NCBI RefSeq assembly: GCF_014197015.1 | Contig: NZ_JACIET010000002.1 | Coordinates: forward strand, 1,488,001-1,552,000 | Length of the DNA: 64,000 nucleotides | Source: Niveibacterium umoris | GTDB taxonomy: Bacteria > Pseudomonadota > Gammaproteobacteria > Burkholderiales > Rhodocyclaceae | Direction: 5' to 3' | Shown: piece after piece, positions 57,282 to 59,930 of the stretch | Position numbering within the stretch: the stretch's first letter is position 1 | Layout of the letters: every line of letters begins with the position of its first letter | The notes under the pieces: generated by a model | The model's database searches: none | Told to the model about the DNA's origin: nothing | What the model saw: the letters and a program-made list of their open reading frames with translations, nothing else | Made by a program: the position numbers and the translations under genes

Positions 57282-57387
57282 GTTGCGCGCCCGATCGCCG
57301 GCCGGCGCAGGCAGCACGGTTGCCGTCTGGCCCCGTACCTCGGGTGTCGATGATCTTGATCTTCAACTTGCAGGAGTGAGCTGACCG

Positions 57388-57984
57388 ATGTCTTCCACTG
57401 CCCCGCGGCCTGCCGATGCCGGGCCGCCCTGGCGCGATGTGCTCGGCGCCGATCTTGCGGCGCATGCACAGGATCCCGCAGCGTTGTTCGTGCAGGTGGC
57501 CACGCTCGATGCCGAGCGGGGGCCCGGTGTCCGCAGCATGACTTTCAGGCGTTTCGGGCCGGAAAGCGAGCTGGTGTTCGTGACGGACTTGCGAAGCGCC
57601 AAAGCCGCCGCGCTCGGGGCAGACGACCGCGCAGAAGCGTGCTGGTACTTTGCCGATGCCAGGGTTCAGTGGCGGCTGGCCGGGCGGATCGCACTGCATG
57701 GTGAGAAAACTTCGACCGAGTGGTCGGCGCTGCGCGCGGCGCTGTGGCGCGACGGCAGCGACGAAGCGCGGCGGCGCTTCCAGTGGCCCACGCCGGGCGC
57801 TGCGCGTGCGCCGGAGTCGGCGTTCGTGACCGAAACGCCGCCGCTTGTGCCGCCGCCGCACTTTGCCTTGTTGGTGCTAATCCCCCAGCGTGTCGAGCGT
57901 CTCTGCCTGCGCTCGACGCCGCATGTGCGTCGCAGCTGGGCGCGGGCCGGCAACGCCTGGGCGCTGCGCGAGCTCAATCCTTGA
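57388..57984 (+). CDS. Pyridoxamine 5'-phosphate oxidase-like FMN-binding protein
   Basis: 198 residues of the Alr4036/PNPOx-like split-barrel family. PPWRDVLGADLAAHAQDPAALFVQVATLDAERGPGVRSMTFRRFGP covers the first strands. The later WYFADARVQWRLAGRI segment contributes to FMN binding, and PPPHFALLVLIPQRVERLCL is conserved at the end. Probably a flavin- or heme-related oxidoreductase in the cytosol. The 3' end overlaps the RHH gene by 11 bp on the opposite strand. The SD is GGAG in GCAGGAGTG. Confidence 0.75.
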   Translation: MSSTAPRPADAGPPWRDVLGADLAAHAQDPAALFVQVATLDAERGPGVRSMTFRRFGPESELVFVTDLRSAKAAALGADDRAEACWYFADARVQWRLAGRIALHGEKTSTEWSALRAALWRDGSDEARRRFQWPTPGAARAPESAFVTETPPLVPPPHFALLVLIPQRVERLCLRSTPHVRRSWARAGNAWALRELNP

Positions 57985-58159
57985 GTTCGGGCGGAGGTTC
58001 CCCGCCCGGCCGGATGCCGCGCCGCGCGAGCGCCTCGCGCAGCAGGTACTCGATCTGCGCATTGGTGCTGCGCATTTCGGTCGCGGCGAGTCGTACCAGC
58101 GCATCCCACACGGCCGGATCGATCCGCAGCGGATAGGCCTTTTTGCCGGGTGAGGCCAT
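57974..58159 (-). CDS. Ribbon-helix-helix (Arc-type) DNA-binding protein
   Basis: 61 residues from ATG 58159, whose A overlaps the stop of the SPFH gene. KKAYPLRIDPAVWDALVRLAATEMRSTNAQIEYLLREALARRG gives the beta strand, helix A and helix B of the Arc/MetJ fold, with the N-A-Q-I-E-Y-L-L core typical of the Arc family. Dimers insert the strand into the major groove. It is co-transcribed with the SPFH gene, and a palindrome at 59086-59097 is a likely operator. No toxin-like gene is adjacent. Function beyond repression is unknown. Confidence 0.78.
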   Translation of the reverse strand: MASPGKKAYPLRIDPAVWDALVRLAATEMRSTNAQIEYLLREALARRGIRPGGEPPPELKD

Positions 58160-59064
58160 CAGGTGTAGAGCGTGCCGCTGTTGACGACCGGCGTGACCTC
58201 CCGCTCGCCACACAGCACCACCAGCAGGTTGCTGACCATGGCTGCGCGGCGTTCATCGTCGAGTTCCACCATCTTGCGTTCGGCCAGTTGTGCGAGCGCC
58301 ATTTCGACCATGCCGACTGCGCCTTCGACGATCTTGCGTCGGGCGGCGATCACCGCTTCGGCCTGCTGGCGACGCAGCATCGCGTTGGCGATTTCCGGCG
58401 CGTAGGCGAGGTGGGTGAGCTTGGTCTGATCGACGACCAACCCGGCCATCGCGAGCCGTTCGCCGAGTTCCGCGGCGAGCGTCTCGGCGATTGACTCTGC
58501 CCCGCCGCGCAGGGTGCGCGAAGCCGGTATGTCTTCGGCGTCCATCGTGTCGTAGGGGTAGGCGCTGGCGAGGTGACGCAGCGCGGTTTCGCTCTGGATG
58601 CGCACGAAGGCCTCGTAGTCATCCACGTCGAAGAGCGCCTTGGCGGTGTCGTCCACCCGCCAGATGATCGCGCCGGCGATTTCGACCGGGTTGCCGCGCT
58701 GGTCGTTGACCTTGAGTTTCTCGGTGAGGAAGGTACGTGCCCGCAGCGAGAGTTTCTTGCGCGAGAAGAACGGGATCGTCCAGCGCAGGCCGCGACCGCG
58801 GTCGGTGCCGGTGTAGGCGCCGAAGAGTTGCAGTGTCGCCGCCTCGTTCGGCTGCAGCATGTAGATGCCCGGCACGATGAAGAGCAGCCCGAGCGCCAGC
58901 GCACCAAGGCGCCATCCCGCAGTGGCAAGCTCGCTTTCGGAGGGTTGCCCGGAGGCGAGCCCGACGACGGTCGAAATGGCCGTCAGCAGGAGGGCGAGTG
59001 CGACGACCAGGGCGATGTAACCGGTAAACGCGATGCCGCTGCGTTCGTTGTGAGCGGGGGGCAT
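58159..59064 (-). CDS. SPFH/band-7 domain membrane protein
   Basis: 301 residues from ATG 59064 with GAGGC 5 nt upstream. Two N-terminal hydrophobic segments (about 12-38 and 50-72) precede an SPFH domain (about 80-230) with [30 protein letters not shown] and [32 protein letters not shown]-terminal coiled region ([28 protein letters not shown]) follows. SPFH proteins oligomerise at the membrane and organise lipid microdomains or regulate proteases. Translational coupling to the RHH gene (ATGA-type overlap) implies a working pair. Confidence 0.85.
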
Positions 59065-59085
59065 GGATGCCTCGTTGGATATCGA

Positions 59086-59123
59086 AGTGATATCACTATT
59101 GTTCGCTCGCGGCCGAATGTCAA
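59086..59123 (-). promoter_or_regulatory. Promoter and palindromic operator of the SPFH-RHH operon
   Basis: On the minus strand TTGACA (59123-59118) and AATAGT (59100-59095) are separated by 17 bp. The perfect 12-bp palindrome AGTGATATCACT (59086-59097) overlaps the -10 by three bases and covers the start of transcription. This is the place where an RHH repressor would block its own operon. Confidence 0.72.
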
Positions 59124-59145
59124 GGTCGCTTCGACGCGCACCGGG

Positions 59146-59151
59146 TAGAAT
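59146..59151 (+). promoter_or_regulatory. -10 element of rnpB
   Basis: TAGAAT at 59146-59151 lies 7 bp before the predicted 5' end of RNase P RNA. A -35 at the standard spacing is weak. It is divergent from the SPFH promoter, and the two share the 59086-59158 region. Confidence 0.5.
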
Positions 59152-59158
59152 CCGCACT

Positions 59159-59541
59159 GGAAGTCCGCCAGGCAGTCGCGGTACCGCGAGGTATCGAGGA
59201 AAGTCCGGGCCCCGCAGGGCAGAATGCCGGCTAACGGCCGGGCGCTATAAGCCGAAAGGCCCAAGGCGACGGAAAGTGCAACAGAGAGCAGACCGCCGAT
59301 GGCCCCGCAAGGGGATCAGGTAAGGGTGAAACGGTGGGGTAAGAGCCCACCGCGTCCGTGGTGACACGTACGGCACGGTAAACCCCATTCGGGGCAAGGC
59401 CAAATAGGGGAGCGTTGAGGCGGCCCGCTGAGCTCCCGGGTAGGCTGCTAGAGCTTCGCAGCAATGCGTCGACCAGAGGAATGACTGCCCCGTCTCCGCA
59501 AGGGGGCGCGACAGAACCCGGCTTATCGGCGGACTTCCACT
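59159..59541 (+). ncRNA. rnpB: RNase P RNA, bacterial type A
   Basis: About 383 nt. Helix P1 is formed by GGAAGTCCGCC (59159-59169) and GGCGGACTTCC (59528-59538). Conserved elements occur in order: GAGGAAAGTCCGGGC (CR I, near 59197-59211), CAGGGCAGAATGCCGGCTAAC, CGGAAAGTGCAACAGAGAGCAG split over CR II/III, GGTAAGGGTGAAACGGTG, GGTAAACCCC, and AGAGGAATGACTGCC (CR V region) before ACAGAACCCGGCTTATCG. It is the catalytic RNA that matures tRNA 5' ends. The length and motif set fit type A ribozymes of proteobacteria. The exact 3' end is uncertain by a few bases. Confidence 0.95.
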
Positions 59542-59930
59542 TCGCTTCTTGCCGATACCGGATGCGCCGCAGCGCCACTCCAGGCGCTGACGTGGGCGCG
59601 ATACCACCGCCTATTTTGCGCTAACGCTTTTCGACGAACTGACGCGCCTTGCGCATCTCAACGTCGTCGTTCGTCGCGCGGCTTGCGCGGCGCCTCCCAG
59701 CTTTCAAGACGCAGCCGCCCGAGCGGCGCTCATCTTTCCCGGAAACCGCTTTCTCCTCCGCCTTGCCGACACGTTTCTGCGATCGCTCGCCATTCGTCGG
59801 AGTCCTGTTTCTCGCAAGCCACTTCAGCTTCTATGCCTATGGTCTTGTATTTATTGAGAAAACCTGCGCGCCGGCTTGTGCGTCGCCCGTAAGTCCTTGT
59901 GTTGTTTGAGAAAAACCTCCTGAAGCTCGC
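59542..59930. other. 389-bp region between rnpB and the mraZ promoter, no gene seen
   Basis: A small open frame (59649-59909) has no ribosome-binding site or recognisable domain. The GC content falls along the stretch, and the last 60 bp are AT-rich with runs such as GAGAAAACC and GAGAAAAACC. No intrinsic terminator with a clear stem was found for rnpB. Confidence 0.5.

What the first reader, a model, noticed from the sequence alone, without database searches (positions are those of the whole stretch)
57974..59123. SPFH membrane scaffold paired with an Arc-type repressor and a palindrome over the -10
The SPFH gene and the 61-residue RHH gene overlap at stop/start, and a perfect AGTGATATCACT overlaps the -10 of TTGACA-N17-AATAGT. 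It looks like an antitoxin-type autoregulated operon whose partner is a membrane-domain organiser and not a toxin. I know of no described function for such a pair, and it may be a small membrane-stress system.
Basis: partly seen in the sequence, partly recalled or inferred. Interest (0 to 1): 0.7.

Follow-up and report, generated by a model that had tools for sequence, protein, structure and literature searches.

The report
Membrane scaffold wired to Arc-type repressor
A bacterial membrane-scaffold gene travels with a tiny DNA-binding protein gene and a conserved DNA switch in its own promoter, and the scaffold's far end changes when the DNA-binding gene is missing, which suggests that the scaffold talks to its own repressor.

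Summary
Confirmed: an SPFH gene (301 aa) overlaps a 61-aa ribbon-helix-helix (RHH) gene by one base, and AGTGATATCACT overlaps the -10. Alone, the palindrome could be chance; comparison says otherwise. All 80 RHH homologues kept from a genome scan lie downstream of this SPFH. A GTGATATCAC-like site precedes SPFH in 108 of 112 RHH-containing loci and 0 of 15 RHH-less SPFH homologues. A second GATATC tends to recur exactly 11 bp away, as it does in the window. The pair occurs in five phyla. By sequence the RHH is closest to P22 Arc and has no conserved toxin-binding tail, so 'antitoxin' is not supported. Unexpectedly, the SPFH C-terminus (D269, E271, R272, M276 and the tail NxGTLY) is near-invariant with the RHH and altered without it, also in nested losses, though only four independent changes were countable. 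Best model: an autorepressed operon whose SPFH C-terminal cap communicates with its Arc-type repressor. Repression is strongly implied; contact is inferred; inducer and function are unknown. Searches aimed at the pair showed no description of it.

The parts
58159..59064 (-). SPFH/Band_7 membrane protein, 301 aa, two N-terminal hydrophobic segments, SPFH domain, C-terminal helix and tail
   Evidence: Band_7 E=9.3e-25; two hydrophobic segments, also in 111 of 112 RHH-containing homologues
58231..58260 (-). SPFH residues 269-278 ([10 protein letters not shown]), part of the patch whose conservation depends on the RHH gene
   Evidence: D269, E271, R272, M276, S278 are 160-162 of 163 in RHH+ rows, 3, 4, 1, 1 and 5 of 16 in RHH- rows; top-ranked columns in an all-column scan
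58162..58191 (-). SPFH C-terminal tail, residues 292-301 ([10 protein letters not shown])
   Evidence: tail motif in 117 of 117 RHH+ loci and 0 of 15 RHH- loci; 49 of 49 RHH+ loci read later, and not in the single RHH- locus among them
57974..58159 (-). 61-aa Arc-type ribbon-helix-helix protein, presumed autorepressor
   Evidence: profile match to Arc repressor chains in the PDB; invariant R12, R30, S31, N33
59086..59097 (.). operator palindrome AGTGATATCACT over the 3' end of the -10
   Evidence: conserved in 108 of 112 RHH+ loci (at most 2 mismatches to GTGATATCAC), 0 of 15 RHH- loci
59078..59083 (.). second operator unit GATATC, 11 bp from the first
   Evidence: GATATC (at most 1 mismatch) at +11 in 22 and at -11 in 14 of 48 representative promoters, mean 0.2 at other offsets
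59118..59123 (-). -35 element TTGACA
59095..59100 (-). -10 element AATAGT, overlapped by the palindrome
   Evidence: a TTGAC/TTGCA/TTGCC begins 26-28 nt before the 10-mer at 30 sites in the 48 representative promoters

Best explanation
This is a two-gene autoregulated operon. The Arc-type RHH protein is the repressor. As dimers it binds GATATC units spaced one helical turn (11 bp) apart across the -10 and start site of the operon's own promoter and blocks RNA polymerase. The SPFH protein sits in the inner membrane through an N-terminal hairpin, with its SPFH domain in the cytoplasm, and probably forms a ring or dome as stomatin does. Its C-terminal helix face (D269, E271, R272, M276) and last residues (NxGTLY), which in stomatin-type domes form the cytosolic cap, are the part that communicates with the repressor, most likely by direct contact, so that the state or amount of the SPFH assembly sets repressor activity. 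Shown by comparative sequence evidence: the gene pair, the operator and its 11-bp phasing, and the co-distribution of the RHH gene with the operator and the SPFH C-terminus. Inferred: repression, topology, dome, contact, and the sign of the feedback. Unknown: the inducer and the cellular role.
For: Pairing: 80 of 80 loci kept of 563 relatives; 18 of 18 strong hits in a 249-genome phylum sample; 12 of 12 in a 300-genome order sample. Operator: 74 of 112 exact, 94 at most 1 and 108 at most 2 mismatches in RHH+ loci; 0 of 15 at most 2 mismatches in RHH- loci; 0, 3 and 112 of 2240 control windows. In the order sample, drawn by SPFH alone, 12 of 12 RHH+ and 0 of 6 RHH- have the site. 11-bp phasing: 32 of 48 promoters. 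The site is the only genome copy in 8 of 17 RHH+ genomes and extra copies are no commoner than in RHH- genomes (16 in 17 against 11 in 6), so it is a local operator. The core is GATATC in 109 of 112. RHH is Arc-like. C-terminus: tail motif 117 of 117 against 0 of 15 and 49 of 49 in loci read after the motif was set; ten columns with the largest RHH+/RHH- difference all lie in residues 269-300; in L234, an RHH- member inside an RHH+ genus, the only core invariants changed are D269, E271, R272, M276; M276 changes with the RHH in 4 of 4 independent contrasts. Codons of these residues vary synonymously about as usual (0.43-0.95, median of all 0.70), so the constraint is on protein. The tail is kept in 24 of 24 loci where more than 100 nt part SPFH and RHH, so it is not a ribosome-binding-site effect. 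Two hydrophobic segments with positive charges outside the loop put the SPFH domain in the cytoplasm.
Against: No binding, expression or interaction experiment exists. Only four independent gains or losses of the RHH gene could be counted; all four agree for the tail and M276, but the sign test cannot go below p = 0.125; a first tree had only two supported contrasts. Most RHH- rows form one clade or long branches. L015 keeps D269, E271, R272, S278, N295 and G297 and differs only at M276 and the last residues; L159 and L167 keep N295 and G297. Six of 163 RHH+ rows have a change in the patch. In a nested loss one deletion could remove the RHH gene and clip the tail together, though not change residue 276 or the operator. 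The tail expression was written after seeing the data. A Thermus plasmid has an RHH of this family next to an ABC transporter gene and no SPFH. No structure could be predicted.
Confidence: 0.6

Rival explanations
1. Simple homeostatic autorepression: the RHH protein represses the operon through the GATATC operator and never touches the SPFH protein. The C-terminal changes in RHH-less homologues have another cause, such as a degradation signal, a changed oligomer cap or another partner lost at the same time.
For: All operator evidence fits equally. Few independent losses. RHH-less homologues of one clade are followed by a small two-TM ORF that could be a different partner (L016, L192, L193).
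Against: The changes concentrate in residues 269-300 in the unweighted all-column scan and in unrelated nested losses (L234, L159/L167, L015).
Confidence: 0.27
2. A type II toxin-antitoxin module in which SPFH is an unusual toxin and the RHH protein its antitoxin.
For: RHH fold, tight gene overlap, autoregulatory operator; annotation pipelines call relatives 'toxin-antitoxin system HicB family antitoxin'; weak Pfam similarity of some members to ParD_like, HicB and FitA-like models.
Against: No conserved segment after about residue 50 of the RHH; partner is a membrane scaffold family; RHH-less SPFH genes are maintained in 15 of 132 scorable loci, which would be lethal if SPFH were a toxin; no PADLOC hit for either protein.
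Confidence: 0.04
3. The RHH protein is itself a small-molecule sensor, as reported for CdbA and c-di-GMP, and SPFH is only the output.
For: CdbA, a 67-aa RHH protein, binds c-di-GMP through the RHH domain (PMC7156744, passages).
Against: No ligand-site comparison was made; it does not explain why the SPFH C-terminus changes when the RHH is absent.
Confidence: 0.06
4. The palindrome is bound by an unlinked regulator and the RHH gene has another job.
For: No binding data exist.
Against: Site and RHH gene are lost together, 12 of 12 against 0 of 6 in the order sample; the site is unique or nearly so in most RHH+ genomes, unlike the operator of a regulon.
Confidence: 0.03

Closest known systems
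Arc repressor of phage P22 (RHH family)
   Same: Best solved relative by profile (engineered Arc 1u9p E=1.9e-8, Arc 1arq E=5e-4); shared LR in the strand and RSVN in the loop; paired operator units one helical turn apart (11 bp for Arc is recalled, not from a call).
   Different: Chromosomal in the window, fixed next to an SPFH gene, operator core GATATC and not the Arc operator.
RHH antitoxins (RelB, ParD, FitA type)
   Same: Small RHH protein, short operon, presumed operator over the promoter.
   Different: No conserved C-terminal toxin-binding region; partner is not a toxin; the regulator gene is second.
SPFH-NfeD operons (stomatin and flotillin types)
   Same: SPFH gene with a conserved small operon partner (PMC2636767, passages and section 11).
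   Different: Partner is a DNA-binding protein, not NfeD. The words antitoxin, repressor and DNA-binding do not occur in the main text of that survey.
YdjI-PspA membrane stress complex of Bacillus subtilis
   Same: A cytosol-facing SPFH protein linked to a stress system: YdjI is required to localize PspA to the membrane (PMC8581546, abstract and outline).
   Different: No RHH repressor is named in that abstract; PspA is not a DNA-binding partner encoded in this operon.
HflK/HflC, QmcA and stomatin
   Same: Distant sequence relatives with solved structures (HflK E=2.5e-7, QmcA 4e-5, stomatin 9e-5).
   Different: Two-segment N-terminus; RHH-dependent C-terminus. Only 15.5-15.7 bits against cut-offs of 134-159 for the hflC and hflK models.

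Membership tests
SPFH / Band 7 proteins | Band_7 domain above the curated cut-off | tested here: met
   88.1 bits, cut-off 23.6
HflK or HflC | match to the NCBIfam equivalog models | tested here: not met
   15.5 and 15.7 bits, cut-offs 134.4 and 159.4
Arc-type RHH repressors | sequence similarity to Arc over strand and both helices | tested here: met
   profile of 43 homologues: nine PDB chains up to E=0.1, eight of them Arc or Arc variants by name and one AmrZ; the window protein alone matches no Pfam or NCBIfam model above its cut-off
Arc-type RHH repressors | operator units one helical turn apart | tested here: met
   GATATC-like unit at exactly +11 or -11 in 32 of 48 promoters, about 0.2 at other offsets
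Arc-type RHH repressors | binds its operator and represses | not testable with these tools
   needs EMSA and reporter assays
Type II toxin-antitoxin systems | antitoxin with a toxin-binding region next to the DNA-binding domain | tested here: not met
   no position after residue 50 reaches 40% identity in 117 homologues
Type II toxin-antitoxin systems | partner toxic when expressed alone | not testable with these tools
   bench test; against it, 15 of 132 scorable SPFH loci have no RHH gene downstream
SPFH-NfeD operons | NfeD gene next to the SPFH gene | tested here: not met
   neighbours in the window are the RHH gene and a PNPOx-type flavoprotein; no NfeD named in the annotated plasmid neighbourhoods read
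Phage-shock (Psp) type membrane stress systems | PspA-type protein in the operon | not tested
   no PspA search was run; the operon itself holds only SPFH and RHH

The most novel reading that the evidence does not exclude
The SPFH assembly is a membrane-gated receptor for a transcription factor. The cytosolic cap of a stomatin-like dome (helix face D269/E271/R272/M276 plus the NxGTLY tail) captures or releases Arc-type repressor dimers and so converts the state of the membrane into transcription. Repressor, 11-bp phased GATATC operator and cap have been kept together in at least five bacterial phyla and are lost together.
Probability: 0.4. Interest if true: 0.85.

Novelty: new variant of a known kind. 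Interest (0 to 1): 0.7.

Why it matters
SPFH proteins are in all domains of life, yet what bacterial ones of this type sense or do is mostly unknown. Here is a widespread group with its own dedicated repressor, a precise operator and a defined patch that appears to link the two. That turns a vague question (what regulates and what reads out a membrane microdomain protein?) into direct tests: one EMSA, one reporter and a few point changes. It would also rename a set of genes that pipelines now call antitoxins.

Tried and rejected
Antitoxin reading: rejected for lack of a conserved toxin-binding tail and a non-toxin partner. Anti-phage defence: no PADLOC match up to E=0.1; viral contigs gave only two 38% RHH relatives, whose neighbourhoods I did not inspect. 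RNA hairpin: the palindrome lies over the -10 and the presumed start site, so at most part of it would be transcribed (inference). Internal start codon at M276 or another nucleotide-level constraint: rejected because synonymous variation there is ordinary. A second regulon: GTGATATCAC is unique or rare genome-wide. Reading of operator specificity from RHH strand residue 10 (P with G..C in 64 of 84, A with A..T in 6 of 10): suggestive, but confounded with clade, so not used.

Limits of the counts: the 80 loci are the best of 563 and were found by the RHH, so they cannot show how often SPFH lacks it; the order, phylum and class samples were drawn by SPFH. L195 was left out of the RHH- count because only 159 nt follow its SPFH gene. 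Five long-branch RHH- rows were left out of the second tree. Three of 166 RHH+ rows were too short for the alignment. Eight genomes with weak RHH hits (21-34 bits) were not checked for SPFH; three weak ones were checked and had none. Four of 112 RHH+ loci lack a site at 2 mismatches (L123, L129, L130, L163), and six of 49 in the later set (L213, L214, L228, L229, L233, L245). In L166 the site scored is not the one visible upstream (TTTGATATCATTATGATATCAAA). Of the 125 Sphingomonadales SPFH genes I read 50: the 30 best, and 20 picked from the lower part, one of them (G1100, L234) because its match stopped one residue early.

Full report
What is there. On the minus strand of the window an SPFH/Band_7 gene (58159-59064, 301 aa) is followed by a 61-aa RHH gene (57974-58159) that starts on the last base of the SPFH stop codon. 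The only promoter-like site that the scan found in 57300-59700 is TTGACA-17-AATAGT in front of SPFH. AGTGATATCACT lies at 59086-59097 over the end of the -10, and a second GATATC lies exactly 11 bp further on (59078-59083). Downstream is a convergent PNPOx-type flavoprotein gene (57388-57984); upstream, on the other strand, the RNase P RNA gene (59160-59541). The nearest named record is Niveibacterium sp. 24ML (RHH 92% identical). The RHH profile finds one match in the window's own genome, whereas Band_7 has seven.

Is the pair real? Yes. Samples drawn evenly from taxa, and so not picked by the pair, agree. In 300 genomes of the order, SPFH (E up to 1e-20) is in 18 and a strong RHH hit in 12; the 12 are all downstream of SPFH. 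In 249 genomes of the phylum, 18 strong RHH hits besides the own one all follow SPFH, and three weak ones (28-38 bits) do not; 21 of the 249 have SPFH. Among six plasmid records with the RHH, four show SPFH next to it; the Thermus record that I read does not and the second Thermus record I did not read. Plasmid records extend the pair to Actinomycetota (Nonomuraea), Deinococcota (Deinococcus), Bacteroidota (Phocaeicola, Prevotella, Parabacteroides, there annotated 'Arc family DNA-binding protein') and Bacillota (Acetoanaerobium).

The operator. I collected 133 distinct SPFH loci: 117 with the RHH gene, 15 without, one undecided. Of the 112 RHH+ loci with a readable 5' region, 74 have GTGATATCAC exactly, 94 with at most one and 108 with at most two mismatches, just upstream of SPFH. 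Of the 15 RHH- loci none has it at two mismatches. In 2240 random windows from the same loci the figures are 0, 3 and 112. In the order sample the split is 12 of 12 against 0 of 6. The core is GATATC in 109 of 112. In 48 promoters thinned for similarity, a further GATATC (one mismatch allowed) stands at +11 in 22 and at -11 in 14, in 32 at either, while other offsets average 0.2 and shuffles 0.26. In 23 genomes searched, the exact 10-mer stands at the SPFH promoter in 15 of 17 RHH+ genomes and is the only copy in eight; copies elsewhere number 16 in the 17 RHH+ and 11 in the 6 RHH- genomes. This is what a dedicated local operator looks like.

What the RHH protein is. A profile of 43 homologues matches Arc chains in the PDB (best 1u9p, E=1.9e-8) and AmrZ more weakly. 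K7, L11, R12, A25, R30, S31, N33 and G48 are at least 97% identical in 117 homologues; after residue 50 nothing is conserved, and the length is 57-85 aa. RHH antitoxins generally carry a separate C-terminal toxin-binding region (PMC4803016, passages), which is absent here. That Arc dimers sit on operator units 11 bp apart is recalled, not taken from a call.

What the SPFH protein is. Distant relatives with structures are HflK, QmcA and stomatin. Two hydrophobic segments precede the domain in 111 of 112 RHH+ homologues, with few positive charges in the loop (mean 0.6 K+R, against 2.7 before and 2.2 after), so the SPFH domain is probably cytoplasmic. In stomatin the cytosolic dome is closed by an apical cap made of the second coiled coil and the C-terminal strand (PMC12407830, passages). 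By analogy, residues 269-301 here would lie in such a cap. I have no model to prove it.

The link between the two. While listing C-termini I saw that all RHH-linked SPFH proteins end in P-x-x-N-x-G-[TS]-[LI]-[YH] or close variants. With that expression fixed, the count is 117 of 117 against 0 of 15, including 24 of 24 loci where more than 100 nt part the genes, which rules out a ribosome-binding-site cause. In 50 Sphingomonadales loci read afterwards, 49 RHH+ all have it, and the single RHH- locus, L234, ends in NAGSI and has no operator; L234 had been picked partly because its match stopped a residue early. Among 62 columns at least 97% identical in 163 RHH+ sequences, those least kept in 16 RHH- sequences are R272 and M276 (6% each), D269 (19%), E271 (25%), R203, S278 and N295 (31%) and G297 (44%), against a median of 94% for the core. 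In 44 RHH+ representatives below 70% identity, with all columns considered, the ten largest differences are M276, L299, R272, Y300, D269, A275, C285, E271, N295 and S278. L234 has lost D269, E271, R272 and M276 and no other core invariant (hypergeometric 6e-5); the two Deinococcus RHH- genes have lost D269, R272, M276, S278 plus D172 (3e-4); L015, nested in Oxalobacteraceae, only M276 plus the last residues.

How independent is this? On a tree built without the tail there are four supported changes of the RHH state; tail and M276 agree in 4 of 4, operator in 3.8 of 4 on average, D269 and R272 in about 3 of 4 with the rest showing no difference, R203 and N295 in only one. Four contrasts cannot reach significance by a sign test (p=0.125). 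An earlier tree had two. The strength lies in the pattern across residues within each loss, not in the number of losses.

How it most likely works. RHH dimers bind the phased GATATC units and shut the promoter. Because the SPFH C-terminus is constrained only while the RHH gene is present, the simplest reading is that RHH touches it. Whether binding there removes the repressor from DNA (an inducing sequestration) or helps it (a co-repressor, as RelE is for RelB; PMC2812701, abstract start in the search listing) cannot be told; I favour sequestration at the membrane, by analogy with systems in which a membrane event takes up a regulator. In at least 10 of the 24 loci with a spacer, the spacer encodes one family of about 150-aa two-TM proteins, and in one a DUF1648-like protein (28.1 bits, cut-off 28.7), so the operon's output is plausibly membrane-related.

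What is known. Searches for SPFH with ribbon-helix-helix (one paper, where the RHH term is in a reference title), with Arc, antitoxin and repressor terms, for the 10-mer (22 papers, 20 listed, none on such an operator by title), with Arc family DNA-binding, flotillin with repressor terms and band 7 with RHH terms showed no description of this pair in the titles and abstract starts listed. The 2009 SPFH survey (passages and section 11) describes NfeD operons and says subfamilies 6-12 have no documented members. A 2026 survey of P. aeruginosa SPFH proteins (passages) has no hit for 'ribbon' or 'antitoxin'. Most subscription papers are not in the library, so a description may exist there.

Noticed in passing
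L034 4001-4126: Thermus thermophilus plasmid: an RHH of this family (66 bits) directly after an ABC transporter ATPase gene, with no SPFH in the 8.1-kb stretch and no TGATATCA. The repressor family may have a second kind of partner.
   Followed up: partly
L073, L078, L089, L091, L099, L108, L111, L112, L114, L115, between SPFH and RHH: At least ten loci encode one family of about 150-aa two-TM proteins between the two genes; the three members scanned (L078, L091, L112) had no Pfam match (my notes say eleven, the BLAST table shows ten).
   Followed up: partly
L062 and L097, between SPFH and RHH: L062 encodes a DUF1648-like membrane protein (just under the Pfam cut-off), L097 a relative of it.
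   Followed up: partly
L016, L192, L193, after SPFH: In an RHH-less SPFH clade a small (about 75-82 aa) hydrophobic ORF follows SPFH directly, possibly a replacement partner.
   Followed up: no
window 59124-59159: The SPFH promoter's -35 lies only about 36 bp from the 5' end of the divergent RNase P RNA gene; the two promoters may interfere.
   Followed up: no
L035 (MT838963.1): A 4.7-kb 'Bacteriophage sp.' contig from human faeces carries SPFH-RHH and looks like bacterial DNA; two similar records were not read.
   Followed up: partly
L031 3995-4186 and L161 4259-4456: The RHH genes are annotated as 'toxin-antitoxin system HicB family antitoxin' and 'PTS ascorbate transporter subunit IIC', both doubtful.
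   Followed up: no
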